NCBI RefSeq assembly: GCF_004358095.2
Contig: NZ_SMZJ02000008.1
Location: 1 to 64,000, forward strand
From: Seonamhaeicola sediminis
Lineage (GTDB): Bacteria > Bacteroidota > Bacteroidia > Flavobacteriales > Flavobacteriaceae
DNA: 64,000 nucleotides
Direction of reading: 5' to 3'
Part shown: positions 34,520-60,081 of the stretch, one piece after another
Numbering within the stretch: the first letter of the stretch is position 1
Layout of the letters: each line of letters begins with the position of its first letter
Notes under the pieces: generated by a model
Seen by the model: the letters and a program-made list of their open reading frames with translations, nothing else
Told to the model about the DNA's origin: nothing
The model's database searches: none
Translations under genes and position numbers: made by a program

Positions 34520-37500
34520 ATGCAAAAATTACTCGCCAATACCCTTTTCTCAACACGTCTTACTGGTTTTTTATTTTTAGTTTTTGCTGCAGCTATGGTA
34601 ACAGGAACTTTTTTAGATGCAGGACAAGAAACATCACCAACACCTTACACAAGAAATTTAATTTATAATGCATGGTGGTTTGAAGTTATCATGGTGTTAT
34701 TTGTAGTTAATTTTTGTGGAAACATTGTTAGATATAGATTGTACAAAAAAGAGAAATGGGCAACATTGATTTTGCACGTGGCATTCATCTTTATTTTTTT
34801 AGGTGCTTTTATTACAAGATATATCAGTTTTGAAGGGATGATGTCAATACCCGAAGGTGGCACTGAAAATGTATTTCTTTCTCAAAAAACTTATGTTACT
34901 GCTTACATTGACGGTGATTACAAAATTGATGGTGTAGCTCAAAGGCTACCTTTAGAGTATGAGGTAGATTTTTCAAAAAGATTGGACAACGATTTTAAGA
35001 TTCAAACCAAGTATAACAAGCAACCTGTTACTATTGAATTAGAAAAATTTGTGGTTGGTGCCGAAGAAACCATTGTTCCAGATGACAATGGTGAGGCGTA
35101 TTTAAAACTTGTTGGAACTAGCGGAGGCGGTAGACATAATCATTTTTTAAAAGTTGGGCAGCAAGCTAGTATTCACAATGTAATTTTTACATTAAACAAT
35201 CCAGCAAAAGGAGCAGTAAACATATTATATCAAGGGGATTCGTTGTTAATAGACTCTCCATTTGAAGGTGATTACATGGTAATGGCTACCCAAGAAAGGG
35301 GAACTTTAGTTAAAGATAGCTTACAATCTTTAAAATTACGATCACTTTACAGAATAGGTAATATGCAAATGGTAATTCCTGAGCCTGTTACTAAAGGTGT
35401 TTTTGATATTGTTCAAAAAGAACAAGTTAATAAAAATGATGAAGATGGTATTGTTTTAAAAGTTTCCACTGGTAGTGAAACAAAACGTGTTGCCATACTG
35501 GGGGGGCAGGGCATGAATAGACCACATAAAAAAATTCAAGTAGGAGGCTTAGATTTTGCGTTCCAATACGGAGCCAAGGTTTTACAGTTGCCTTTTAGCA
35601 TTAAATTGAATGATTTTCAGGCAGATAAATTTCCAGGTTCAGATATAAATTCTGCTTATTCTAGTGAGGTTACCGTCATAGATGAAAAAGAAGGTAGTTT
35701 TGATTATAAAATCTATATGAATAATATCCTAAATCATCGGGGGTATCGTTTTTTTCAATCTAGTTTTTTTCCTGATGAGTCTGGAACCATCTTATCAGTA
35801 AATCATGATTATTGGGGTACACTGTTTACCTACATTGGTTACTTTATGCTATACTTTGGTTTAATGGCCATTCTATTTGTTAAAGGAACGCGGTTTTCAT
35901 ATTTAAGAAAGCAACTTAATAAAGTAAAAGAAAAGAAATCAAAATTAATTACTGTTGTGTTCTTATGTTTAGGTTTAAGCGGTTTTTCGCAACAACATTC
36001 TTCACATGATGGTCACAATCATGAGCATACTGCAGCAGTCTTAACCAAACCAACAAAATCTCAAATAGACTCCATTTTAGCAGCTAATATTACACCAAAA
36101 GAATACGCTGAAAAATTTGCACATTTGGTTATTCAGGATTTAGACGGACGAATGAAACCCGTGAGTACTTACGCCTCTGAAATGCTTAGGAAATTGAGTA
36201 AACATGATACTTACGAAGATTTTGATGCGCATCAAGTATTTTTGTCAATGCAGGAAAGTCCAAGACTATGGTATAATGTTCCTGTGATTTATTTAGCCAA
36301 GAAAAAAGCAGATACCATAAGGCACATTATTGGTACCAGTGTGGAAGATAAGTATGTGACTTTAGCCGATTTCTTTACAGACAAAGGAGAGCTTAAAATA
36401 CAACCGTATTTAGAGGACGCTTTTAATACAACACAACCTAACGGTTATCAAAAGGAAATACAAGAAGCGTATAAGCGTGTTCGCCTTTTGCATGATGCTA
36501 TTGAAGGTGTTTCTTTGCGTTTGTTTCCTATTCCAGATGACCCAAATAACACCTGGATGTCTTCATACGATTACAGATTCCAAGCTCATAAAATTAAAGA
36601 TTCACTTTATGGTAACTTTATTAAGAATGGATTTCAAGCCTATCTTATTACTCTAAATAAAGCAAAACAATCAGGAGATTATTCTGAAGCTGAAAAATTG
36701 TTAGAAGCCTTCAAAAAGACACAACATAAATATGGCGGTGAAGTTATGCTTTCTGATGATAAAGTTCATACTGAAGTATTGTATAACAAGTACGATGTTT
36801 TTGAAAGACTTTTTAGTTGGTACATGTATGCAGGAAGTTTGATGTTTATTTTATTAATTATTCAGATTTTTAGAGATCAAAGTAAAGTACTCAGTAATCT
36901 TGTATCCGTTTTTAAATGGATAATTGTTGGATTGTTTTTTCTGCATTTAGGAGGTTTAATTTTACGTTGGTACGTGTCTGGTCATGCACCTTGGAGTAAC
37001 GCTTATGAATCTATGATATATGTAGCGTGGTCTACCATGTTATTTGGATTAATTACAGGTTTAAGTAAAAGGCAGAAAAAGGTAAGTTTAGATGATGCCG
37101 TCCCTGTGGCTACCAGTCTTATATCACCTGTATTTGGAATATTTAATAGAAGAGGTTCTGATTTAACGGTAGCCTCTGCAGCTTTTGTTACATCAATGTT
37201 GTTAATGGTAGCTCATTTTCAATGGATGGATCCTGCAATAGGAAACTTGCAACCAGTTTTAAATAGCTACTGGCTTATGATACACGTAGCGGTAATTGTG
37301 GCCAGTTATGGTCCGTTTACTTTAGGGATGATTTTAGGTGTTGTTTCACTTTTTTTGATGGCACTTACAACTTCTAAAAACCGTAAAAAAATGAATCTAA
37401 ATGTTAAAGAGCTTACCATTATAAATGAAATGGCTTTAACGGTTGGCTTAGTCATGTTAACCATAGGAAACTTTTTAGGTGGTATGTGGGCCAATGAAAG

Positions 37501-37813
37501 TTGGGGACGTTATTGGGGATGGGATCCTAAAGAAACTTGGGCACTCATTAGTATTATAATTTATGCTTTTGTAATTCATATGCGGCTGATACCTGGACTC
37601 AGGGGGCGTTGGTTTTTTAACCTCTGTTCAGTTATTGCAATTTCATTTATAATCTTCACCTATTTTGGTGTGAATTTTTATTTAGCAGGCCTTCATTCCT
37701 ATCAATCAGGTCAGCAGCTAGACAGCTTTAAGATTATTGCTATTGCCTGTTGTTTTTTGATTTTATTAGGTTTCTTTAGTTATAGGGGGTATGTTAAGTA
37801 CTACAAGAAGTAA
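34520..37813 (+). CDS. ccsBA: Fused ResB-CcsA cytochrome c biogenesis protein
   Basis: A 1097-aa fusion that carries haem across the membrane and attaches it to c-type cytochromes (system II). The first part (about 1-480) is ResB/CcsB-like with membrane segments near 15-35, 50-70, 75-95 and 445-465. After the fourth segment comes a second signal-peptide-like stretch (TVVFLCLGLSGFSQQ) and a His-rich motif, HSSHDGHNHEH. The C-terminal part (about 780-1097) is CcsA with the haem-handling WWD motif WGRYWGWDPKETWA and conserved His in flanking segments. This order is normal for Bacteroidota, the His-rich insert less so. Single gene. Confidence 0.93.
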   Translation: MQKLLANTLFSTRLTGFLFLVFAAAMVTGTFLDAGQETSPTPYTRNLIYNAWWFEVIMVLFVVNFCGNIVRYRLYKKEKWATLILHVAFIFIFLGAFITRYISFEGMMSIPEGGTENVFLSQKTYVTAYIDGDYKIDGVAQRLPLEYEVDFSKRLDNDFKIQTKYNKQPVTIELEKFVVGAEETIVPDDNGEAYLKLVGTSGGGRHNHFLKVGQQASIHNVIFTLNNPAKGAVNILYQGDSLLIDSPFEGDYMVMATQERGTLVKDSLQSLKLRSLYRIGNMQMVIPEPVTKGVFDIVQKEQVNKNDEDGIVLKVSTGSETKRVAILGGQGMNRPHKKIQVGGLDFAFQYGAKVLQLPFSIKLNDFQADKFPGSDINSAYSSEVTVIDEKEGSFDYKIYMNNILNHRGYRFFQSSFFPDESGTILSVNHDYWGTLFTYIGYFMLYFGLMAILFVKGTRFSYLRKQLNKVKEKKSKLITVVFLCLGLSGFSQQHSSHDGHNHEHTAAVLTKPTKSQIDSILAANITPKEYAEKFAHLVIQDLDGRMKPVSTYASEMLRKLSKHDTYEDFDAHQVFLSMQESPRLWYNVPVIYLAKKKADTIRHIIGTSVEDKYVTLADFFTDKGELKIQPYLEDAFNTTQPNGYQKEIQEAYKRVRLLHDAIEGVSLRLFPIPDDPNNTWMSSYDYRFQAHKIKDSLYGNFIKNGFQAYLITLNKAKQSGDYSEAEKLLEAFKKTQHKYGGEVMLSDDKVHTEVLYNKYDVFERLFSWYMYAGSLMFILLIIQIFRDQSKVLSNLVSVFKWIIVGLFFLHLGGLILRWYVSGHAPWSNAYESMIYVAWSTMLFGLITGLSKRQKKVSLDDAVPVATSLISPVFGIFNRRGSDLTVASAAFVTSMLLMVAHFQWMDPAIGNLQPVLNSYWLMIHVAVIVASYGPFTLGMILGVVSLFLMALTTSKNRKKMNLNVKELTIINEMALTVGLVMLTIGNFLGGMWANESWGRYWGWDPKETWALISIIIYAFVIHMRLIPGLRGRWFFNLCSVIAISFIIFTYFGVNFYLAGLHSYQSGQQLDSFKIIAIACCFLILLGFFSYRGYVKYYKK

Positions 37814-40810: not shown

Positions 40811-42652
40811 TTAGAATGGCCAAATCATTGGCACGAGCACTAGCGAAACAATTAAGAACAAGAGTAATAATGGGGCGCCTACTTTGAGATAATTCATGAA
40901 CTTATAACCTCCAGAAGTCATAACCATGGCATTTGTTGTAGTCCCTATTGGTGTTAAGAACGCTGTTGAGGCACTAATAGCAACCACAATCATAAAAGGC
41001 TCTGGCGAAAGGTTTAGAGAACTAGCGGCTAATATGGCAATAGGAGCCATTAGTACGGCTGTAGCAGAGTTATTAATTACCTGACTAAAGGTAGTGGTTA
41101 AAATAAAAACACCCCCTAATAATGCCACAGGATGTATGGCACCTAGGTAATTTACTAAACCATTGGCTATAACTTGTGCAGTTCCTGTTTTTTGTAAAGC
41201 AATACCCATAGGAATCATGGCCGCAATCATAACTACACTGGTCCAACTTATACCTTTGTATGCTTTTGCCATTGGAACACAACCTGTTAGTAAAATGATA
41301 CCCGCAGCTATTAAAGCGGCTATAGAGCCTGGTACTACTTTAAAAACCATAAAAACAATCATAAGTAGTAAAGCACCCATAGCAATGTAAGATCTGTAAT
41401 TGAGGCTTTCTACGTTTTTAGCCATTCCTTCAGGGCTACCACATATTACTAAATTTTCGTGTTGTTTTTTTAGGTCATCAATACTAGCCCAAGTACCTCT
41501 TAATAAAAAGGCATCGCCTACTTTTACGGTTATCTCTTTATCTTGTAAAGGCTTTTGGTTTCTTGAAACAGCCAGTAATTGAATGTTAAATCTTTTAAAA
41601 TAATCTGCTAAATTATATTTCCTACCAACCAACATGGAGTTAGGGTTTACTAAAACCTCAGTCATACCAACCTCTTGGTTAATAAGATTGTTTTTTAATT
41701 CTTCTGTAGACTCTTCCTCTAAAGGTAATAACCCTAACCTGAACCTAATCATAAGGCGGTTGATAGCTTCTGTATCACCTTTAACAGTAATAATATCATG
41801 GTACCTTAATTCCGTATTTAAATCTGGGAATTCTTCAAATTTAGGATATCCTTTTAATCTGTTAGGATGTCTTCTTTTTAGTCTAATTATGGTGATATTA
41901 AACTCTTTTTCAAAATTCCAATTTTCAATTTTAGTATTAATTAATGGAGATAAAGACCTAATACGTAGCCTATAGTAATCATCATCAATTTTGTAAGCCT
42001 CAATCCAATTGTGCAAAGTAGATTCTATATTTACTGGTTTGTTATTGGTTTTATTTTCAGGCAGTAACCTATAGCCAACATATCTAAAATAAAGCAAAGC
42101 AATTATTAACAGGGGTAAGCCAATTAAGCCAAATTCAAAGAATGAAAACCCTTCATGACCTGCTTCAACTAATGAGTTACTAGCAATGATATTAGGAGGC
42201 GTTCCAGTTAAAGTAAGTAAACCACCTGTATTAGAGCCAAAAGCAACTGGCATTAGCATTTTTGAAGGTAATGTTCCTATGCTCCACGCTGATGATATAG
42301 TTAGAGGCATAAGGGTTGCAACAGTACCCGTATTGCTTACAAAACCAGATAATACTCCAGCACCCAAACTTACTATAACTAATAATTTAGGCACACTTTT
42401 ACCAGCCCATTCAACAAATTTCTTACCAGCCATGGCTGTCCAACCAGTTTGAGCAATCCCTTCTCCTATAATGAAAAGGGCAGCAATCATGATGACGGTT
42501 GGGTTACTGAATCCGCTTAAAGTTTCAGCGGGTGTCAAAATACCTGTTAAATACAAGGTAATCATAGATATTAGTGCAACAATATCTGGAGTGAATTTTC
42601 CCCAAACAAAAAGTACAATTGTTACTACTAAAATAAAGAGCATTAAATACAT
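40811..42652 (-). CDS. SLC13-family permease with two RCK_C (TrkA_C) domains
   Basis: A 613-aa transporter. The two membrane halves contain SNTGTVATLMPLTISSAWSI, NTGGLLTLTGTPPNIIASNS and NNSATAVLMAPIAILAASSL, STAFLTPIGTTTNAMVMTSG, the mirrored SNT/TP clamp motifs of divalent anion/sodium symporters. Between them (about 210-400) are two TrkA_C-like soluble domains (NFEKEFNITIIRLKRR, YFKRFNIQLLAVSRN). Such proteins move sulfate, dicarboxylates or similar anions. It is upstream of pckA on the same strand. Confidence 0.9.
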   Translation of the reverse strand: MYLMLFILVVTIVLFVWGKFTPDIVALISMITLYLTGILTPAETLSGFSNPTVIMIAALFIIGEGIAQTGWTAMAGKKFVEWAGKSVPKLLVIVSLGAGVLSGFVSNTGTVATLMPLTISSAWSIGTLPSKMLMPVAFGSNTGGLLTLTGTPPNIIASNSLVEAGHEGFSFFEFGLIGLPLLIIALLYFRYVGYRLLPENKTNNKPVNIESTLHNWIEAYKIDDDYYRLRIRSLSPLINTKIENWNFEKEFNITIIRLKRRHPNRLKGYPKFEEFPDLNTELRYHDIITVKGDTEAINRLMIRFRLGLLPLEEESTEELKNNLINQEVGMTEVLVNPNSMLVGRKYNLADYFKRFNIQLLAVSRNQKPLQDKEITVKVGDAFLLRGTWASIDDLKKQHENLVICGSPEGMAKNVESLNYRSYIAMGALLLMIVFMVFKVVPGSIAALIAAGIILLTGCVPMAKAYKGISWTSVVMIAAMIPMGIALQKTGTAQVIANGLVNYLGAIHPVALLGGVFILTTTFSQVINNSATAVLMAPIAILAASSLNLSPEPFMIVVAISASTAFLTPIGTTTNAMVMTSGGYKFMNYLKVGAPLLLLFLIVSLVLVPMIWPF

Positions 42653-42950
42653 GTTTCTAGTGTTTTCTCGTTTGATTAATTATTGTGTAAAATTACTATT
42701 GATTGCCCCAATTTATTATGATTAATGTCATAAACAAAGGCGTGTAATTATTTTTTAATTATTCTTATATTTAGCTAGTAAAATTTGGTAATACTTTTAG
42801 CGAAGACGTTTTCGTAATCAGAGTTTTTACATGATTTTAAATTTCTTTTGAAGGATTAAAGAAACTCTTTTTCATTACATTTAAAAACTTTAAGGATTAT
42901 TATGAAAAAAATAGGGTTTTTGAAAAAACTTTTAAACACAAAATTAATAA
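42653..42950. other. 298-bp divergent intergenic stretch
   Basis: This gap separates the divergent SLC13 and bshB1 genes. It is AT-rich with TATATTTA around 42767 as the only promoter-like piece. A short ATG frame begins at 42902 but runs out of frame into bshB1 and is not coding. I see no repeat, RNA or operator I can support. Confidence 0.5.
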
Positions 42951-48995: not shown

Positions 48996-51900
48996 ATGAA
49001 ATATAAACTTTGTATATTATTTTATTTAGTCTTTGTTAATTTTTTGATTTCGCAAACAGAAAAAATAGATAGTCTTAAATTTATTTTTGAAGATCAAAAA
49101 CAGACAGATTCTATACGTTTTGAGGCAGGCTTAGATGCTTTCATGATACTTTTTAGAAAAAATATTGATACTGCAAGAGTTTTTGGAAATAAGGTTTTAA
49201 AATTTTCTGAAGAAAAAAACAACACAAACTGGCGTGCAACTTCTCTAAGATTTATTGGTAATACTTATGCGGCTAAAGGCCAGTTTACAGAATCCTTAAA
49301 ATTTTTTTTTGCCAGTCATGAGTTGCTAACTGAATTATCAGATGAGAAAGGTATGGCAACCACTTATAATAATATTGGAATCACTTATTATGAGTTAGGT
49401 GATTTTACAAAGGCTTTAGACTATTTACTTCAAGGGTATAAGTTATCTGAGAGCTTAAATGACACTTTAAATCTCTCAAGAGTTACTAATAATTTGGGTA
49501 ATGTTTATATACGACAGAAGAATCAAGAAAAAGCGCTTGAATATTATAATTTAAGTTTAAAATTAAAAGAGAAATCTGGAAATAAATATTCAATCTCACA
49601 TGCATACAATAATGTTGGATTGGTATATACAAACTTAAAGAATTTTGATCTAGCCTTAGAGAATTTATTAATCAGTGCTGAGCTTTCTAACGAAGTTAAC
49701 GATCAAAGATCGCTATCTAGAGCCTATGGCAATATTGGTCAGCTTTATAATATTCATGGCAGGTTTACAGAAGGTTTGGAGTATCTTAATAAAGCAATAA
49801 AAATTAAAGAACAAATAGGAGACAACGAAGGTTTAGTATCCAATTATTTATACCGGGGTGGGGGTAACCACTTTTATACAAGTAAATATTATTTAGCTAA
49901 ATCAGATTGTGAAAAAAGTTTGGAATTAGCTCGCAACATGAATGTTTTAATTGCCGAAAAAGAAGCGTGTGAGTGTTTAAGTAAAGTTTGGGAAAAACTA
50001 GGTAACTATAATAAATCGCTTCAATATTATAAACAATCAATTACAGCTAAAGACTCACTATTCAACAACGAGAAAACTAAGGAAATTACCCGGCAAGAAA
50101 TGCAATATCAGTTTGACAAACAAAAGCTTGCCGATAGTATAGCCTTTAATAAACAGCAGGCTAAACAAGAATTACAATTTGCTCAAGACTTAAGTAAACA
50201 AAGAAATAAAATAAACCTTCTAATATTTGGTACTATAGGGTTGTTGGTAATAGGATGGGTTTATTGGCAGTCAAGACAAAAAAGTATTAAACTAAAAAAT
50301 GAAAGAAATATTGTTAATAAATTAAAGCAAGTAGATCAATTAAAAGATGAATTTTTAGCGAATACTTCGCATGAACTTCGTACACCTTTAAATGGAATTA
50401 TAGGGTTATCTGAATCATTAAAGGATGGTGTAGCTGGTCAATTGTCTCAAAAAGCAATTGAAAATTTAGACATGATTGTAAATAGTGGTAAGCGATTATC
50501 TTATTTAGTAAACGATATCCTAGATTTTTCTAAACTTAAGAATAAAGATATTACCCTGTCTTTACAATCAGTAGATTTGTATTCTGTTGTTTGTATGGCA
50601 TTGAAAATTTCTGAGGTATTTGTGAAAGATAAACCAGTAAGGTTGGTGAATTCTATACCTAAGGATATTCCTTTGGTATGGGCAGATGAGAATAGGCTGC
50701 AGCAAATTCTATATAATATTATAGGTAATGCTATTAAGTTTACTGAAAGAGGGAAAATTGAAATTAGCTCAAAGGTTGATGGAGAGTTTATAAAGACTTA
50801 TGTAGTAGATACAGGTATTGGGATTCCAGAAGACAAGTTTGAAGCAATATTTAAGTCCTTTGAACAAGTTGACGGTTCAACAGAACGTGAATACGGAGGT
50901 ACAGGATTAGGCTTAACTGTAACCAAACAGCTGGTAGAATTACACGGTGGCGAAATTGAAGTAAATTCTAAAGTCAGAGAAGGTTCCACATTTAGTTTTA
51001 CAATTCCAAGAAGCCCAGATAAGCGAAGCGACCATTCATTTTCTGAACAAACTGATGAAAGTCTACAAGTTCAGTCTTTGGCAAATCATAATTCAAAGGA
51101 ATCTATATTAGAAATACCTCAGTTAAAAAATCATACAAATATTTTAATTGTTGATGATGAACCTATTAACCGTCGTGTTTTAGAAAATCACCTTTCAGTA
51201 GCCGGATATAATGTTCATGAAGTAGGAAGTGGTAAAGAAGCATTAGAACTTTTAGATGAGGGTTACAAATTTGATTTAGTTTTATTGGATATTATGATGC
51301 CCAATATGTCGGGCTATGAGGTATGTGAAATCATAAGGAGGCGTTACCTGACCAGTGAATTACCAATTATATTACTGACTGCAAAAAATAGGGTGAGTGA
51401 TCTGGTAATAGGGTTTAATGCAGGGGCTAATGACTACTTGACAAAGCCTTTTTCAAAAAACGAATTGTTGAGTAGAATTAAAACGCATTTAAGCTTGTAT
51501 GGCATTCATAAGGCTACAAGTAAGTTTGTACCCTATGAATTTTTAAGATCAGTAGGAAGGGAGGCTATAACTGATGTTGTGTTAGGAGATTATATTGAAA
51601 AAGAAATAACGGTTTTATTTACCGATGTAAGAGATTATACGAGTTTGGCAGAATCTATGACTCCAGAACAGAATTTCAAATTTGTCAATGCTTATGTAGG
51701 AAGGATGGGGCCTTTAATTCAAAATAATAATGGATTTGTAAATCAGTATTTGGGAGATGGTATCATGGCGTTATTTCCCGAGCAAGCCCAAGACGCACTT
51801 ATGGCGTGTATAGATATGCAAAAGGTTATCCAACAGTATAACGAACGGAGACAAAAAGAAGGTTATGATATTATACATGTAGGTATGGGCTTACACACTG

Positions 51901-52373
51901 GTAAGTTGGTAATGGGTATCATTGGTGACCCCAATAGAAACGATACGGCCATAATTGCAGATACAGTTAATACGGCATCTCGTATGGAGGGTGTAACCAA
52001 GCACTATGGTGCTAATATTATTTTAAGTGAGGCAAGCATTGATACTATTATAAATAAAGAAGATTTTAATTTTAGATTTTTAGGAAAGGTAATGGTAAAA
52101 GGAAAGCAGCATGCTATGGGAATTTATGAGTGCTTTGACGGTGATTCGGTGAAACAGATAGAATTAAAACTAAAGACTCTTAAAGATTTTGATAAAGGTT
52201 TGAAACATTTTTTAAACAAAGAGTTTCCAAAAGCTTCAGCGTTATTTGATAAGGTAATCAATAAAAATCCAAAAGATGACGTAGCATACTATTTTATGAC
52301 TAAATCTGCTGAGTATACTATTTCTGGAGTACCAGAGGATTGGGAAGTGATTAATAAAATGGATAAAAAATAG
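48996..52373 (+). CDS. TPR-histidine kinase-receiver-nucleotide cyclase hybrid
   Basis: A 1125-aa single-polypeptide signalling protein. In order: signal peptide; periplasmic TPR repeats (about 55-360); one membrane helix (about 405-425); HisKA with SHELRTP (His459); HATPase_c with NIIGNAIKF, and GTGLGLTVTKQL; a receiver with ILIVDDEPINRR and Asp765 in LLDIMMPN; and a class III cyclase domain (about 870-1035) with metal Asp877 and Asp921 and VNTASR. A helical tail follows. The Lys that selects the base is Gln in NQYLGDG, as in many bacterial hybrids. It would turn a periplasmic signal into cAMP or another cNMP. It converges on the globin-cyclase gene (40 bp). Confidence 0.92.
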   Translation: MKYKLCILFYLVFVNFLISQTEKIDSLKFIFEDQKQTDSIRFEAGLDAFMILFRKNIDTARVFGNKVLKFSEEKNNTNWRATSLRFIGNTYAAKGQFTESLKFFFASHELLTELSDEKGMATTYNNIGITYYELGDFTKALDYLLQGYKLSESLNDTLNLSRVTNNLGNVYIRQKNQEKALEYYNLSLKLKEKSGNKYSISHAYNNVGLVYTNLKNFDLALENLLISAELSNEVNDQRSLSRAYGNIGQLYNIHGRFTEGLEYLNKAIKIKEQIGDNEGLVSNYLYRGGGNHFYTSKYYLAKSDCEKSLELARNMNVLIAEKEACECLSKVWEKLGNYNKSLQYYKQSITAKDSLFNNEKTKEITRQEMQYQFDKQKLADSIAFNKQQAKQELQFAQDLSKQRNKINLLIFGTIGLLVIGWVYWQSRQKSIKLKNERNIVNKLKQVDQLKDEFLANTSHELRTPLNGIIGLSESLKDGVAGQLSQKAIENLDMIVNSGKRLSYLVNDILDFSKLKNKDITLSLQSVDLYSVVCMALKISEVFVKDKPVRLVNSIPKDIPLVWADENRLQQILYNIIGNAIKFTERGKIEISSKVDGEFIKTYVVDTGIGIPEDKFEAIFKSFEQVDGSTEREYGGTGLGLTVTKQLVELHGGEIEVNSKVREGSTFSFTIPRSPDKRSDHSFSEQTDESLQVQSLANHNSKESILEIPQLKNHTNILIVDDEPINRRVLENHLSVAGYNVHEVGSGKEALELLDEGYKFDLVLLDIMMPNMSGYEVCEIIRRRYLTSELPIILLTAKNRVSDLVIGFNAGANDYLTKPFSKNELLSRIKTHLSLYGIHKATSKFVPYEFLRSVGREAITDVVLGDYIEKEITVLFTDVRDYTSLAESMTPEQNFKFVNAYVGRMGPLIQNNNGFVNQYLGDGIMALFPEQAQDALMACIDMQKVIQQYNERRQKEGYDIIHVGMGLHTGKLVMGIIGDPNRNDTAIIADTVNTASRMEGVTKHYGANIILSEASIDTIINKEDFNFRFLGKVMVKGKQHAMGIYECFDGDSVKQIELKLKTLKDFDKGLKHFLNKEFPKASALFDKVINKNPKDDVAYYFMTKSAEYTISGVPEDWEVINKMDKK

Positions 52374-52412
52374 CTTTGTGAAATTTAATGTTAAGTTTAA
52401 TAAATAATATGT

Positions 52413-53747
52413 TTAAGTTTCTTTGGCAAAGCGTTTCATTTCTGAGGTTACAGTTTCCAAGGCTTGTTTCCAAGCCTTTAAAAGTTGTGGGTTACTCATG
52501 CTTCCTAATGTTTCCTCTATAGTTTCCATAAGACACTCTAAAACAACTGGATAATGTCCTTCTTGAACACCGTATCGTGAATGACTTTCCCCTAAGAGTT
52601 TAAGCCCCAAAGTAAGATGTTCTGGTCTACTCATAGAATAAACAATACCACCCAACATGTGGGTTAGAAGTCTTCCTTGAGAAGCCATATTATTTTTAAA
52701 TAGGGCTTTAGCATCTGGTGCTTTAGTAAATACTTTATCATAGAACTTACTAGCAAAAGCATCTTCATTTCTCAGTAAATGATCAAGAGACTGTTGTAAT
52801 TCTAACTGAACGTCCATTTCCTTAAAGCCAAATAATTCATGTATTACCGTGTCATGGTCATGCCCGGCCATTTGATTTGAAAATGAGCGTCCTATATCTA
52901 AAGTATTTGGTGAAACACTTTTGAAAACAGAATCTGAAATTAAAATAGAGGTTTGCGCTTGTTTGTTGAAAGATTGTATTCTGCTTGCTGTGTTTACAGG
53001 GTCTCCAACAACAGCAAATTGTTTGTGCTTTGGATGACCTAAATGACCTATGTAAGCTCTGCCAAAATTAATACCTATTCCCAATTTTAGATTAACATTA
53101 AAATCAACCAGTTCAATATGATTAAGGCGTTCAATAGCATATTGCATGCCCAATGCAGCTCTTATAGCATCTTTGCAGTTTTTACTTTTCAAGCCACCAG
53201 AGACACCAAATAAGCCAATAATTTCATCACCTACGTATTGATAAATAACACCGTTATTTATTAGGATAGGATCTCCCAAAACCGTGTAAAACCTGTTTAA
53301 AATGTGAGCCACATCAAAAGAGCTATTTTCAGAAGCTAGTTTTGTAAACCCTCTAATATCACAGAATAAAATGGCTATAGGACGTTCTTCGGCCACACCC
53401 TCAGGAATGGTTTCAAGTTGTAATCTGTTAACCTCAGAATTGGTCCAAACCAAACGTTGAATACTTACATTACCTTTGGTATAGCATTGACAAGCTAAAC
53501 GAATGGAAGGATCCCATTTACGTACCCTAGCAACTTCTTGTTCTTTTAAGGTGCGAGGATTTAAATTACTATGTCCGTCCATCACTCTAATACGGCAAGT
53601 TGTACACAAACCATTACCTCCACATTCATGAATGTGTGGAATTTGGTTCATTATAGAACATTCCAAAAGTGAAGCATCAAGATCATGATGTTCAACTTGT
53701 TGGTTGATTCCCGTGTAAGTTATAATTGAAGCTTTTACTTCTGGCAT
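52413..53747 (-). CDS. Ferredoxin-cyclase-globin fusion
   Basis: A 444-aa cytoplasmic protein of three domains. Residues 1-100: plant-type [2Fe-2S] ferredoxin with Cys42, Cys48, Cys51 (ECGGNGLCTTC) and Cys86 (RLACQC). Residues 120-305: class III nucleotide cyclase with metal Asp130 (FCDIRGF), Asp174 (YVGDE), and Asn252/Arg256 (VNTASR). Residues 315-440: a globin of flavohaemoglobin type with proximal His389 (ESHSRYGV) and a distal Gln357. Gln and Ala replace the usual Lys and Asp/Thr that read the base, so whether cAMP or cGMP is made is open. It probably senses redox state and O2 or NO. Its stop faces the hybrid sensor; nifJ lies 179 bp upstream. Confidence 0.9.
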   Translation of the reverse strand: MPEVKASIITYTGINQQVEHHDLDASLLECSIMNQIPHIHECGGNGLCTTCRIRVMDGHSNLNPRTLKEQEVARVRKWDPSIRLACQCYTKGNVSIQRLVWTNSEVNRLQLETIPEGVAEERPIAILFCDIRGFTKLASENSSFDVAHILNRFYTVLGDPILINNGVIYQYVGDEIIGLFGVSGGLKSKNCKDAIRAALGMQYAIERLNHIELVDFNVNLKLGIGINFGRAYIGHLGHPKHKQFAVVGDPVNTASRIQSFNKQAQTSILISDSVFKSVSPNTLDIGRSFSNQMAGHDHDTVIHELFGFKEMDVQLELQQSLDHLLRNEDAFASKFYDKVFTKAPDAKALFKNNMASQGRLLTHMLGGIVYSMSRPEHLTLGLKLLGESHSRYGVQEGHYPVVLECLMETIEETLGSMSNPQLLKAWKQALETVTSEMKRFAKET

Positions 53748-53925: not shown

Positions 53926-56900
53926 TTATGATTTATGTCCCAAAATCATTTGAAATTTTTTATTTTGAACAAGCTTTGTTCTATTACTGAGATTTGATGA
54001 AGAAACTGCTAAATATTTATTAAACCTATTATCTATATGTTTTTGAATCTGCCTCATCAAAATTTGAAAGTCCGCAAGGTTAGAGTTTAATAGTTTTGAA
54101 AAACGCTGTTCCTTTTTTAGGTAGTCTTTAATTTTTATTGAAGGAACCTTAGAATCTAGCTTAAACGTGTTTTGCCTGTATTCTGACCGTCTTGGGTCAT
54201 TTCTATACAATAGCCATTGACCAGAGTTTACAGCTGCTTTATGATATTGGCTTGGACTTTTTATATCAATACCATGGGATTCACTGTGGCAATAGGCAAT
54301 GATTACAGAAGGTCCATCAAAACTTTCAGCTTCATTAAAGGCTTTTAAGGTTTGGTCTTGGTCTGCGCCTATAGCTACAGACGCTACATAAATGTTATCA
54401 TAGTTCATAGCTAACAAGCCTAAATCTTTCTTCTGTTTTTGTTTTCCGTTGAAGGCAAATTTTGCTTGTGCACCATAAGGTGTTGCTTTTGATGCTTGTC
54501 CTCCAGTGTTATCATAAACCTCATTGTCCAAAACTAGGATATTCACGTTTTCACCTGATGCTAACACATGATCAATACCCCCAAATCCAATATCGTAAGC
54601 CCATCCATCGCCCCCAACAATCCAAATACTTTTTTTAATAAAGACGTCACTAATCAAAAGTAAATCTTTGGCTTTAGGTGTATTTAGCTTTTGTAGTATT
54701 GTGTTGAGATTAGCAACTTTTTGTTTTTGTTGATTGATTTGTTGCTCTGTGTTTTGAGGGTTGTTCAGGATATCGAAAGATAATTCAAAACCTGCTTGAA
54801 ATGATAACTCTTCTAAGAGTTGTTTAGCTTGTTGTTCTTTTTGTTTTATGGATAATCTAAAACCTAGACCAAATTCGGCATTATCTTCAAATAATGAGTT
54901 AGACCATGCAGGACCTTGACCTTTGTTGTTTTTAGACCAAGGTGTTGTTGGTAAAGCACCGCCAAAAATAGAACTTGAGCCCGTTGCATTTGCAACTAAT
55001 AATCTTTCTCCAAATAATTGCGATATAAGTTTCAAATAGGGTGCCTCACCACAACCTTTAACACCGTTTGAGTACTTGAATAAAGGTTCTTGTAACTGTT
55101 GTTGGCTCACTTTTGATGTGTCTATTAAACTCCTATCAAATTCAGGAATAGTCTTAAAATATTCCCAGTTATTTTTTTGTTCTTTGTAAACGTTTTCACT
55201 TTTTTCAAGTTTTAGTGCTTTTACAGGACAGGCATCCACACAGTTATTGCAACCATTACACTGGTCTGGATTAATTTGAATGGTATAATTCATTAAATCG
55301 AAATCTTGAGAAACTATATGATTTAAAGTTTTGGGAGCATTATTTAAATGATCAATACTAAAAACTTTAATTCTTAAAGCAGCTTGCGGACATGCCATAC
55401 TACAAGCACCACATTGGGTACAAGTATCTGTGTCCCATTTTGGAATAAATTTTGAATTTTGAACCAAATTGAATTTTGAGGTGTCACTTTCAAAAGTACC
55501 ATCTATAGGAAATTGGCTTACTGGAATGTCATTTCCTTTGTTATTTAATAATTTGCCTAAAAGAGAACGGTCAAAAGATTCATCAAAACGATTCAAAATA
55601 GTTTCTCTTATTTTGATATTAGTAGTGTCGACCTTGTAAATGAAGTCGTTTAAATCATTAATGGATTCAGAATAAATCAAATCTTTTTTTAAAGCTAGAA
55701 AGCAAGCATGTAATTCAGATATATTTTCATTTTTAAATATTTCTAGTTTCTCAATATCAGTCATATTTACAATTAGTAAATTGATGCGATTTCTTTTAAT
55801 TTCTCTTTGGATATTTACTGATAATGATTGCCAGTATGCTTTTGACGTTAGTGAAGAGTTAACCAGTAGCGTACCGCCTGATTTTAGATTTTTTAAAGTG
55901 TTGTTGTTTAAAGTGAAGTTAGCTTGCTGGCAACCAATAAAATTAGCTTGTTCTATTAAATATGGTGCTTTTATAAGATTGTTGTCAATGCGTAAATGCG
56001 CTGCGTTATAAGCGTTAGACTTTTTATAATCGCATTGTATATAACCTTGAATAAACGTGTTTTCTTTTTTTGAAATAAGCTTTAATATGTTTGTGAAACT
56101 TTTAGTTTGCTTGATGTTTTTTTTCTGATAAAATATGGTTTGATAATTATTGTTGGTAATATGTAGTGGTTCAGAAACATTTAAACTTAAATTTAAGACA
56201 TCATCATTGATACCAATAGTGAAATTGTTTTTAGGTTGGTATTGTTTTGAATTTTTGAAAATAGCATTCACCATACTGGGCGTAAATTCTTTTGAAGATA
56301 GCCCGTATCTACCCCCTAAAACTTTAGGAAATTTTTTTAGTTGATGATTTTGATATGCTTCGGCAATTGATTTTAAAATGTCTAAATACAAAGGCTCTCC
56401 ATTAGAGCCTGCTTCTTTAGTTCTGTCCAAAACAGCAATAGATTTTACTGATTTTGGTAAAGCCTGTAATAGATGTTTAGTGCTGAATGGCCTGAATAAT
56501 CTAACTTTAATCAAACCGTACTTATTCCCTTTTTTATTAAGTTGCTGAATGGTTTGCTCAATCGTTTCTGTTGAAGAAGCCATAGATACAATAATATGTT
56601 CGGCATCTTTTGCACCCGTATAGTCGAATAGGTTGTATTGTCTATTGGTTAAAGATGCGAATGTGTTCATTTTGTTTTGAACAATATCAGGACAAATCTG
56701 ATAAAGTGGATTGATGGCTTCTCTACTTTGAAAGAATACATCAGGGCCCTGAGAGGTGCCTCTAATTACTGGACTGTTAGGGTTTAAGGCATTTAATTTA
56801 TGGTTTTTTATAGCTTTTTTGTCCATCATAAACTGAATGGTTTCTTCAGAAAGCAGTTCAATACTTGAAATTTCATGAGAAGTTCTAAAGCCATCAAAAA

Positions 56901-57411
56901 AGTGAATAAAAGGTATACGTGACTCTAAGGTTGCAGCTTGGGCTATAAGTGCAAAATCCTGGGCTTCCTTTACCGATGCGCTTCCTAACATAGCGTACCC
57001 CGATTGACGAACCGCCATAACATCACTATGGTCTCCAAATATAGATAGGGCATGGGTTGCTATACTTCTGGTGGCTACGTGAATTACATTAGGGGTCAAT
57101 TCGCCTGCAATTTTACACATATTAGGGAGCATAAGCAATAAGCCTTGTGATGCTGTGAAAGTGGTTGATAATGAACCTGTTTGTAGGGCTCCATGCATTG
57201 TGCCGGCTACCCCGGCTTCACTTTGCATTTGAAAAACTGAAGGTACATTACCAAAGCAGTTTGGTTTGTTTTCAGAACACCATTGCTCCACTAATTCACT
57301 CATTTCAGAGGCAGGTGTAATGGGGTAAATGGGAAGAACCTCATTGGTTTTATAAGCAATTCTTGCTACCGCTTGATTTGCATTGGAAATTTGTTGTGTT
57401 GAAGTTTTCAT
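53926..57411 (-). CDS. nifJ: Pyruvate:ferredoxin oxidoreductase with altered proximal cluster site
   Basis: A 1161-aa homodimer-type PFOR: pyrimidine domain at the start (NEVLPIYPITPASEMSE), two ferredoxin-type clusters in CTQCGACSMACPQA and CNGCNNCVDACPVKA, and the ThDP domain (GGDGWAYDIGFGGIDHVLA). The proximal [4Fe-4S] site, four Cys in known PFORs (Cys812, Cys815, Cys840, Cys1071 in Desulfovibrio africanus), reads here Val784, Cys787, Ser812 and Ser1043, with a displaced Cys1041. The proximal cluster is therefore probably absent or held differently. It follows osmC across a terminator hairpin. A role in low-oxygen pyruvate use is likely; the electron acceptor is unclear. Confidence 0.92.
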   Translation of the reverse strand: MKTSTQQISNANQAVARIAYKTNEVLPIYPITPASEMSELVEQWCSENKPNCFGNVPSVFQMQSEAGVAGTMHGALQTGSLSTTFTASQGLLLMLPNMCKIAGELTPNVIHVATRSIATHALSIFGDHSDVMAVRQSGYAMLGSASVKEAQDFALIAQAATLESRIPFIHFFDGFRTSHEISSIELLSEETIQFMMDKKAIKNHKLNALNPNSPVIRGTSQGPDVFFQSREAINPLYQICPDIVQNKMNTFASLTNRQYNLFDYTGAKDAEHIIVSMASSTETIEQTIQQLNKKGNKYGLIKVRLFRPFSTKHLLQALPKSVKSIAVLDRTKEAGSNGEPLYLDILKSIAEAYQNHQLKKFPKVLGGRYGLSSKEFTPSMVNAIFKNSKQYQPKNNFTIGINDDVLNLSLNVSEPLHITNNNYQTIFYQKKNIKQTKSFTNILKLISKKENTFIQGYIQCDYKKSNAYNAAHLRIDNNLIKAPYLIEQANFIGCQQANFTLNNNTLKNLKSGGTLLVNSSLTSKAYWQSLSVNIQREIKRNRINLLIVNMTDIEKLEIFKNENISELHACFLALKKDLIYSESINDLNDFIYKVDTTNIKIRETILNRFDESFDRSLLGKLLNNKGNDIPVSQFPIDGTFESDTSKFNLVQNSKFIPKWDTDTCTQCGACSMACPQAALRIKVFSIDHLNNAPKTLNHIVSQDFDLMNYTIQINPDQCNGCNNCVDACPVKALKLEKSENVYKEQKNNWEYFKTIPEFDRSLIDTSKVSQQQLQEPLFKYSNGVKGCGEAPYLKLISQLFGERLLVANATGSSSIFGGALPTTPWSKNNKGQGPAWSNSLFEDNAEFGLGFRLSIKQKEQQAKQLLEELSFQAGFELSFDILNNPQNTEQQINQQKQKVANLNTILQKLNTPKAKDLLLISDVFIKKSIWIVGGDGWAYDIGFGGIDHVLASGENVNILVLDNEVYDNTGGQASKATPYGAQAKFAFNGKQKQKKDLGLLAMNYDNIYVASVAIGADQDQTLKAFNEAESFDGPSVIIAYCHSESHGIDIKSPSQYHKAAVNSGQWLLYRNDPRRSEYRQNTFKLDSKVPSIKIKDYLKKEQRFSKLLNSNLADFQILMRQIQKHIDNRFNKYLAVSSSNLSNRTKLVQNKKFQMILGHKS

Positions 57412-58227: not shown

Positions 58228-60081
58228 CTAAATAGGGCGTTCTATCCCTAGGGATTTTATTCTTGATGCTAAAGTGGTTGGTGGCATTTGCAGTAATTCG
58301 GCAGCACCATTTTTGCCAGAAATCTTCCATTTAGTTAGCCTTAAAGCTTTTAAAATGTTTTCTTTTTCAAATAAGTTCAGTTCATTAATAGTTAAAATAC
58401 GTTGTGTATTATTTTGAACCTGGGTTTCTAAAGATATTGAAACATTTGGAATAATGGCATGCCAATTAATGGCACCATTTTCTGAGACAATAACAGCACG
58501 TTCTATTAAATTTTGAAGTTCACGTACATTTCCGGGCCAGTGATAAGCCGATAATAGATTTTTGTCTCCTTCAGTTAAATTAGTAATAGGTTTATTGAGT
58601 TTTTTTGAGAATTGCTCTAGCATTTCATTAGCTATTAGTAGTAGGTCACTACCCCTGTCTCGAAGAGGAGGTACTTCAATAGGGAACACATTAAGGCGAT
58701 AGAATAAGTCTTCTCTAAATTTTCCTTCTTTTGAGAACTCTAAAAGATTTCTGTGAGAAGCAGCTATAATTCTGACATCTACCTTTACTGTTTCTGAGCT
58801 TCCAACGGGGTCAAATTCTCCTTCTTGAATGACACGAAGGAGTTTGGGTTGTAATTCTAACGGCATTTCGCCAATTTCATCTAAAAAAATAGTGCCTTGG
58901 TCTGCTAATAAAAAGCGTCCTTTTCGGTCTGCAGTGGCTCCCGTAAACGCTCCTTTTTTATGACCAAACAATTCACTTTCAATTAAATTATTAGGAATAG
59001 CTCCACAATTAATGCGGATTAAAGGTTTGTGATTTCTATCACTTTCTTTGTGTATAGCACGAGCAATTAATTCTTTTCCAGTTCCAGTTTCTCCATGAAT
59101 TAAAACAGTTGCATCTGTTTTGGCTACTTGCTGTATTAGATTGAGTACTTGTTTCATAGCTGTATTTTCGGCAATAATGCCATAGCTACTGGTAAGTTCT
59201 TTTATTTCCTCTTCTAAATATTGTGTTTGTTTAGTAAGTAAATTTATCTTGTCTTCAGCAATAAGCCGTTCTTCAATGTTACGAAGAATGAGTGTGAAAA
59301 AGGTTTTAGAGCCGATGCCATATTTACTAATAGTGCCTTCATTTAAAGTTTCGGTTTCATTGGAGCCTATAACCTTTACAATTTTTGGCAGGTACTTATT
59401 AGTGTTAGTATTATTTTCTAACCCAGACTTAACAATACCTTCAATTAAATTTGCACTGTTATCATCAAAGAAGAAGAGTATGTTTCGCTGTAATACATCT
59501 TCATTTTCTAGGAGGTGGTTGGCAGACGGATTGGTAAGTACAATTTTAAAATTACTGTTAAACATTATGATAGCATCCATAGCACCATTAATGAGACTAC
59601 TCATTTTATTATTGGCTATCTCCATATCCTGTTTTGAGGTTGCCAATCGTTCTTGTATGGTATCTAATTCTCTATGGCGTTTTATCATAACCGCCAAAAT
59701 ACCTTGAGCAAAACCACTATCACTAGCCATTAAGTCAAGAAATTGCTCTCGTTTAATGATTAGGACTTTGGTTTTTTCTAAGGCCGTAACAGAGGCAGAA
59801 CGGGTTTCGTTATCAATGAGGGCATATTCACCAAAACAATCACCATTTGAGAGCGTTCCGTAAATGTGACTTTTATCATGAACTTTTACCTTTCCATTAA
59901 TAATAGCAAACATAGAATTTCCTACCTCATTTTTATGGACAATCACTTCGTTTTTGATGAAAGAAGCTTGTTCAGATTCTTTGCATAAATTGTATAATGA
60001 TTTAGAAGATACCTCTGATAAAAAAGGGATTTCAGATAAAAATTCAATTAAAACATTAAGGGTTGGCTCAGGCATAAACAA
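58228..60081 (-). CDS. Sigma-54 activator with an N-terminal cyclic-nucleotide-binding domain
   Basis: A 617-aa regulator. Residues 8-125 are a CRP-type domain whose phosphate cassette is intact ([16 protein letters not shown]: Gly-Glu ... Arg-Ser). Residues 165-285 look like a PAS domain ([19 protein letters not shown]). Residues 305-535 are the AAA+ core with Walker A GETGTGKE, the GAFTGA sigma-54 loop, and [18 protein letters not shown]. The C-terminus is a Fis-type helix-turn-helix ([20 protein letters not shown]). A cNMP sensor on a sigma-54 activator is uncommon. It lies next to its presumed sites (58171-58225) and two cyclase genes, so it is the likely effector of the circuit. Confidence 0.9.

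What the first reader, a model, noticed from the sequence alone, without database searches (positions are those of the whole stretch)
52413..53747. Ferredoxin-cyclase-globin triple fusion
One 444-aa chain holds a [2Fe-2S] ferredoxin (Cys42/48/51/86), a class III cyclase with both metal Asp and the Asn/Arg pair, and a globin with proximal His. All key residues for cluster, catalysis and haem are present. Cyclases with ferredoxin are known and globin-cyclases are reported in a few organisms; the three together in this order I do not recall as described. It could combine redox state and O2/NO into one second-messenger output.
Basis: partly seen in the sequence, partly recalled or inferred. Interest (0 to 1): 0.85.

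Follow-up and report, generated by a model that had tools for sequence, protein, structure and literature searches.

The report
Ferredoxin-cyclase-globin three-domain signalling enzyme
A bacterium encodes a single protein joining an iron-sulphur domain, a cyclic-nucleotide-making enzyme and a haemoglobin-like domain; the same three-part protein is kept in many related species, so it is probably a real sensor that turns redox or gas conditions into a chemical signal.

Summary
In detail: a 444-aa ORF on the minus strand (52413-53747) carries Fer2, class III cyclase and globin, all above Pfam cut-offs. It is not a one-off: 36 further loci encode the same chain, mostly Bacteroidota, plus a Variovorax and a Rhodothermales MAG. 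Cluster cysteines, metal aspartates, the Asn/Arg pair, proximal His, B10 Tyr and E7 Gln are invariant in 37 of 37 rows, and all three parts are under purifying selection. Trees of both halves are consistent with one fusion event. The closest precedent is S. meliloti CyaC, a redox-regulated cyclase with haem anchor, Fer2 and cyclase; here the anchor is absent and a C-terminal F-family globin is present. Best reading: a soluble nucleotide cyclase gated by [2Fe-2S] and haem state. Neither ligand nor product is shown; an invariant Gln replaces the usual adenine-binding Lys. A denitrification link (NosZ) and a general partner gene were tested and not found. Seven aimed paper searches found no description of the triple fusion. 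New variant of a known kind.

The parts
52413..53747 (-). Gene for the 444-aa Fer2-cyclase-globin (FCG) protein
   Evidence: 36 further full-architecture loci
53481..53711 (-). Fer2 [2Fe-2S] domain (aa 13-89); Cx5Cx2C...C = Cys42/48/51/86
   Evidence: Pfam PF00111; Cys 37/37; nearest solved chains by sequence: NDH subunit B3, terpredoxin, a ferredoxin, putidaredoxin
52902..53384 (-). Class III nucleotide cyclase domain (aa 122-282); Asp130/Asp174, Asn252/Arg256, Gln170 at the purine-Lys position
52437..52748 (-). F-family-like globin domain (aa 334-437); Tyr336 (B10), Gln357 (E7), proximal His389, Tyr399
   Evidence: Pfam PF00042; alignment to 3s1i E 2.6e-16; 37/37. Helix position names are recalled
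48996..52373 (+). Neighbour: TPR-histidine kinase-receiver-class III cyclase, tail-to-tail with FCG; the only other Guanylate_cyc domain found in the genome (possible partner, not shown)
58228..60081 (-). Nearby cNMP-binding-PAS-sigma54 activator; candidate effector in this lineage only

Best explanation
FCG is a soluble, probably homodimeric class III nucleotide cyclase whose activity is set by two cofactor domains on one chain: an N-terminal [2Fe-2S] ferredoxin domain, joined to the catalytic core by a conserved linker, and a C-terminal F-family globin that starts directly where the cyclase ends. Shown here: domain content and order, presence of the catalytic, cluster and haem residues, conservation as one unit, and trees consistent with a common origin of the fusion. 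Inferred: that the cluster and haem are bound; that their redox or ligand state (O2 the more likely ligand, since Tyr-B10/Gln-E7 pockets bind O2 tightly in related globins, recalled) changes dimer geometry and so the cyclase rate; and that the product acts on Crp-type or cNMP-sigma54 regulators. It works like a cytosolic counterpart of the haem-gated CyaC design.
For:: three Pfam domains over cut-off in one ORF. D130, D174, N252, R256, C42/48/51/86, Y336, Q357, H389 and linker residues L109, Q110, E112 are 37/37; three domains in 36 of 36 members; dN/dS against L012 is 0.039 (Fer2), 0.056 (cyclase), 0.069 (globin). AF2 model mean pLDDT 83.4, pTM 0.80; the cyclase core matches CyaB, CyaC and Cya2 structures. 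FCG rows are one side of a branch in the Fer2-cyclase tree (97/96) and in the globin tree (97, quick method). S. meliloti CyaC is reported redox-regulated through haem, and the gene annotated cyaC in strain Ak57 encodes Fer2 plus cyclase. HemAC-Lm makes cAMP in response to O2 binding.
Against: No experiment. No neighbour family is shared by more than 7 of 37 loci, so context does not name a pathway. The adenine-binding Lys is replaced by Gln170 in 37/37 and the second purine residue is Ala/Ser/Thr/Cys (21/11/4/1 of 37), so substrate and rate are uncertain. The family is patchy: 14 of 397 genomes of the window's family, 3 of 395 of a phylum sample. NosZ co-occurrence is at background, and the cNMP-sigma54 protein is in only 3 of 14 carriers against 36 of 383 others.
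Confidence: 0.7

Rival explanations
1. Self-reducing sensor: the ferredoxin domain mainly passes electrons to the globin haem, keeping it ferrous (as the FAD domain does in flavohaemoglobin), and only the haem ligand state gates the cyclase.
For: The globin is flavohaemoglobin-like (NCBIfam PRK13289 E 7.8e-13 for the domain, far below that model's cut-off for the whole protein); Fer2 resembles electron-transfer ferredoxins; a pyruvate:ferredoxin oxidoreductase-type gene lies directly upstream in the window, and within 6 kb upstream in L012, L013 and L015.
Against: No distance data between cofactors; the PFOR cluster is in only 3 of 37 loci within 6 kb; Fer2-cyclases without a globin are common, so Fer2 has a role without a globin.
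Confidence: 0.2
2. The globin is an NO dioxygenase or NO sensor and FCG reports nitrosative stress.
For: Tyr-B10/Gln-E7 (recalled as typical of NO dioxygenase globins) are invariant; one relative in the PDB is named nitric oxide dioxygenase (6wk3, E 1.5e-13).
Against: NosZ is in 7 of 14 carriers against 174 of 383 others: no enrichment. NosZ is only a proxy; NO reductase was not tested.
Confidence: 0.12
3. The product is cGMP (or both nucleotides) rather than cAMP.
For: Gln at the Lys position in 37/37; the top solved relative 2w01 is titled guanylyl cyclase Cya2 and has Glu there; the CyaC-type Fer2-cyclases examined keep Lys (L064, L066, L067, L118).
Against: Gln is found (recalled) in mycobacterial Rv0386, an adenylyl cyclase; one search was searched for this but no passage was read. 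Sequence alone does not decide.
Confidence: 0.3
4. The cyclase is a degenerate scaffold without activity.
For: Only the altered purine-specifying residues.
Against: Both metal Asp, Asn and Arg 37/37; dN/dS 0.056 in the cyclase part against L012.
Confidence: 0.05

Closest known systems
Sinorhizobium meliloti CyaC (redox-regulated adenylate cyclase, class III)
   Same: Fer2 directly before a class III cyclase (Pfam on the cyaC gene of the Ak57 record); haem in the same chain and redox-regulated (passages of PMC10463352); 29% identity in the aligned Fer2-cyclase part
   Different: CyaC has an N-terminal six-helix membrane domain with two haem B and no globin hit; FCG has no membrane part and a C-terminal globin; Lys in CyaC is Gln in FCG
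Soluble two-domain Fer2-cyclases of Bacteroidota (Hymenobacter volaticus L065; L062, L063)
   Same: Fer2-type motif plus cyclase in frames of 306-335 aa; Pfam confirmed for L065
   Different: end 54-56 aa after the cyclase NxxxR motif; no globin; Asp or Glu at the purine-Lys position
HemAC-Lm of Leishmania major
   Same: soluble haem-containing adenylate cyclase that responds to O2 (passages of PMC4534343)
   Different: eukaryotic; no ferredoxin domain known to me (recalled); sequence not compared here
F-family-like globins in the PDB (3s1i, thermoglobin 7dih, 3wfw globin 'fused to Roadblock/LC7 domain')
   Same: sequence match E 2.6e-16, 1.6e-12 and 6.7e-13; Tyr, Gln and His in register in 3s1i
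   Different: 3s1i and 7dih chains are 139 and 142 aa, no cyclase
Globin-coupled sensors (S-family)
   Same: globin joined to a signalling output
   Different: GCS carry variable C-terminal output domains (PMC1457004, abstract in the listing), so the globin is N-terminal; here it is C-terminal and F-family-like

Membership tests
Class III nucleotide cyclase | Guanylate_cyc domain over Pfam cut-off, with two metal Asp and the Asn/Arg pair | tested here: met
Class III nucleotide cyclase | cyclase activity on ATP or GTP | not testable with these tools
   no assay
Class III adenylyl cyclase with Lys-Asp/Thr adenine pair | Lys and Asp/Thr specifying adenine (roles recalled) | tested here: not met
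   Gln170 37/37; position 245 Ala 21, Ser 11, Thr 4, Cys 1; positions placed by the 1wc1 and 2w01 alignments
[2Fe-2S] Fer2 ferredoxin domain | Fer2 domain with four cluster cysteines | tested here: met
   30.3 bits against 21; four Cys 37/37
Globin (PF00042) | globin profile over cut-off with proximal His | tested here: met
   49.9 bits against 22; H389 37/37
Globin (PF00042) | binds haem | not testable with these tools
   no assay
Globin-coupled sensor (S-family) | S-family globin N-terminal to the output domain | tested here: not met
   globin is C-terminal; Protoglobin profile hits 2 of 36 members, best E 0.0028, against PF00042 in 36 of 36
Flavohaemoglobin | FAD/NAD reductase domain after the globin | tested here: not met
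   the ORF ends at aa 444, 7 residues after the globin match; no such Pfam hit
CyaC-type Fer2-cyclase | Fer2 followed by class III cyclase | tested here: met
CyaC-type Fer2-cyclase | N-terminal six-helix haem membrane anchor | tested here: not met
   Fer2 begins at aa 13, so there is no room for an anchor

The most novel reading that the evidence does not exclude
FCG contains an internal electron wire: the [2Fe-2S] domain and the globin haem exchange electrons across the cyclase dimer, so the enzyme works as a logic gate that makes its second messenger only for a particular combination of cytoplasmic electron supply (ferredoxin/PFOR pool) and O2 or NO occupancy. CyaC-like membrane haem/Fer2 cyclases and FCG would then be two solutions to one haem-Fe-S-cyclase wiring scheme.
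Probability: 0.2. Interest if true: 0.85.

Novelty: new variant of a known kind. Interest (0 to 1): 0.6.

Why it matters
Bacteroidota cyclic-nucleotide signalling is poorly charted (my judgement). This family gives a compact, soluble, testable enzyme in which redox (Fe-S) and gas (haem) inputs can be separated by point mutation on one chain. It also suggests that the ferredoxin domain of CyaC-like cyclases is a working part rather than a passenger, since it is kept where the membrane haem anchor is absent and a globin is present. The one CyaC paper that I searched (PMC10463352, passages) holds neither 'ferredoxin' nor 'iron-sulfur' in its main text; the primary CyaC paper of 2019 was not read.

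Tried and rejected
Shared operon partner: clustering ORFs of 37 loci (L012-L048, flanks up to 6 kb, at least 30% identity and 60% query coverage) gave no neighbour family shared by more than 7 loci, so a universal partner was rejected. cNMP-PAS-sigma54 activator as dedicated effector: it lies within about 8 kb of FCG in the window and in the genomes of L012, L013 and L015, but in the family sample it is in 3 of 14 FCG carriers and 39 of 397 genomes overall, and in 3 of 18 FCG genomes asked directly, so it is rejected as a general partner. In carrier G183 it is over 3 Mb away by coordinates. Sigma54 promoters in the window: 27 matches against 25.9 expected, no signal; the pattern is recalled. 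Denitrification link by NosZ: negative. FCG in viral contigs: 1 weak hit covering aa 86-286 only. FCG on plasmids: 0 of 561 matching records cover 80% of the query (30 of 561 rows were listed). The Pfam and Foldseek results for the whole model listed mainly cyclases by fold; Fer2 and globin folds were not searched alone and rest on sequence profiles. The H23 Glu of flavohaemoglobins could not be placed, as the alignments printed end before it; inconclusive. Degenerate-scaffold and artefact readings were rejected.

Limits of the counts. One search scans six peptide patterns, so 37 loci is a lower bound; L018 and L044 lie on one contig. The carrier/non-carrier counts assume that searches drew the same 397 genomes: the handles agree where shown, but genomes without a match are mostly not listed. 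Trees contain long outgroup branches and treekit warned that long branches meet. The globin tree has 5 outgroup rows, because 3 of 8 fetched globin loci gave no frame by my filter; the Fer2-cyclase tree has 7 of 11 fetched globin-less rows, because L114-L117 failed my motif filter. dS against L013 is near saturation.

Full report
Check of the observation. The interval 52413-53747 carries on its minus strand a 444-aa ORF from ATG. Pfam places Fer2 at 13-89, Guanylate_cyc at 122-282 and Globin at 334-437, all over the curated cut-offs. The genome that holds the window has 3,537,147 bases in 50 contigs, and the nearest named relative of this locus in the genome collection is Seonamhaeicola aphaedonensis at 93% identity.

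A conserved family. One scan of the genome collection returned 37 loci. 36 of them (L012-L047) were aligned with the window, 37 rows in all. They come from Flavobacteriaceae (Seonamhaeicola, Mangrovimonas, Wocania, Eudoraea, Christiangramia/Gramella, Robiginitalea, Flagellimonas, Allomuricauda, Maribacter), Saprospiraceae and other Bacteroidota such as Echinicola and Marinigracilibium, one Variovorax and one Rhodothermales MAG. The 37th locus, L048, lacks the ferredoxin part and has a broken frame. All three Pfam domains are found in 36 of 36 members of alignment A1, and in a second Variovorax-group copy, L131. The family is patchy: full-length matches in 4 of 59 near relatives, 14 of 397 genomes of the window's own family, taken to be Flavobacteriaceae, 3 of 395 in a phylum sample and 2 of 101 genomes of the genus of the Variovorax genome. 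In that last group 63 further genomes match over the ferredoxin-cyclase part only.

Selection and origin. dN/dS against L012 is 0.039, 0.056 and 0.069 in the ferredoxin, cyclase and globin parts, and 0.043 overall against L013, where dS is near saturation. In a tree of the ferredoxin-cyclase part, 37 FCG rows and 7 relatives without globin are separated by one branch (97/96). In a tree of the globin part, FCG rows are separated from 5 single-domain globins (97, quick method). Both carry long-branch warnings. One fusion event followed by vertical and some horizontal spread is the simplest account. The Variovorax and Rhodothermales copies branch first in the ferredoxin-cyclase tree with weak support (85/43) and are unresolved in the globin tree; the direction of any transfer cannot be told.

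Context. In the window the gene ends tail-to-tail with a TPR-histidine kinase-receiver-cyclase gene. These two hold the only Guanylate_cyc domains found in the genome. Upstream on the same strand are a PFOR-type gene, an OsmC-type gene and a cNMP-binding-PAS-sigma54 activator. This activator is the best of ten cNMP_binding matches. By eye, with the motif recalled, it carries the canonical phosphate-binding cassette; the other nine do not, one of them (C47:78955) partly. One RpoN gene is present, but the window shows no excess of sigma54-like sites. This suggests a local signalling set in Seonamhaeicola and Wocania. It does not generalise: the activator is in 3 of 14 FCG carriers and 36 of 383 other genomes of the sample, and in 3 of 18 FCG genomes asked. 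No neighbour is common across the family.

Function. The design is close to S. meliloti CyaC, whose cyclase responds to respiratory quinones through two haem B in a six-helix membrane domain (passages of PMC10463352). FCG has Fer2 plus cyclase without the anchor, and a globin. I infer a soluble cyclase controlled by Fe-S redox and haem ligand state. O2 is the more likely ligand by pocket type (recalled); NO is less supported, since NosZ, a denitrification marker, is present in 7 of 14 carriers and 174 of 383 others. The steps from cofactor to activity, and from cNMP to effector, are inferred.

Literature. Seven searches of the open-licence library were aimed at the fusion and three at its relatives. 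No listed title or abstract start describes a ferredoxin-cyclase-globin protein; several listings were capped. I read passages only, of PMC4821796, PMC3820574, PMC3287990, PMC10463352 and PMC4534343. Subscription reviews of bacterial globins were not available, so absence from print is not proven. Whether domain databases already list the architecture was not checked.

Verdict. New variant of a known kind; interest 0.6.

Noticed in passing
48996-52373 (+): 1125-aa TPR-histidine kinase-receiver-class III cyclase hybrid; by eye it too has Gln at the purine-Lys position. A similar gene is tail-to-tail with FCG in L012, and is not beside FCG in L013 or L015.
   Followed up: partly
58228-60081 (-): cNMP-binding-PAS-sigma54 activator with a canonical-looking cNMP cassette; its N-terminal half has a match in 39 of 397 genomes of the family.
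   Followed up: partly
53926-57411 (-): Single-chain pyruvate:ferredoxin/flavodoxin oxidoreductase-type gene directly upstream of FCG; its cluster is also within 6 kb upstream in L012, L013 and L015.
   Followed up: no
L090 (own genome contig C34, 303900-306500): A Crp/Fnr-type gene, a single-domain globin gene and a gene for a protein with one CxxCH motif lie in a row: a possible second globin-linked regulatory unit.
   Followed up: no
L082 (own genome contig C34, 532000-533700): 352-aa frame with a receiver-like N-terminal part and a Crp-type cNMP/HTH part (cNMP match).
   Followed up: no
L018 and L044 (same contig CAJXYJ010000002.1): Two FCG copies about 22 kb apart on one contig of a Flavobacteriales MAG.
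   Followed up: no
G811 contig C32 (genome of L046, Variovorax): FCG at 51109-52401 and a separate ferredoxin-cyclase match at 41900-42670, about 8.4 kb apart on the same strand.
   Followed up: no
L048:5971-7033: Broken FCG remnant without the Fer2 part in a Burkholderiales MAG.
   Followed up: partly
34520-37813 (+): 1097-aa protein with CcsB cytochrome c biogenesis similarity only at 879-1061, below that model's cut-off (171.9 against 187.6 bits).
   Followed up: no
G000:C45:183377-185179: Sec-type nitrous oxide reductase match; this family was found in 181 of 397 genomes sampled from the window's family.
   Followed up: no
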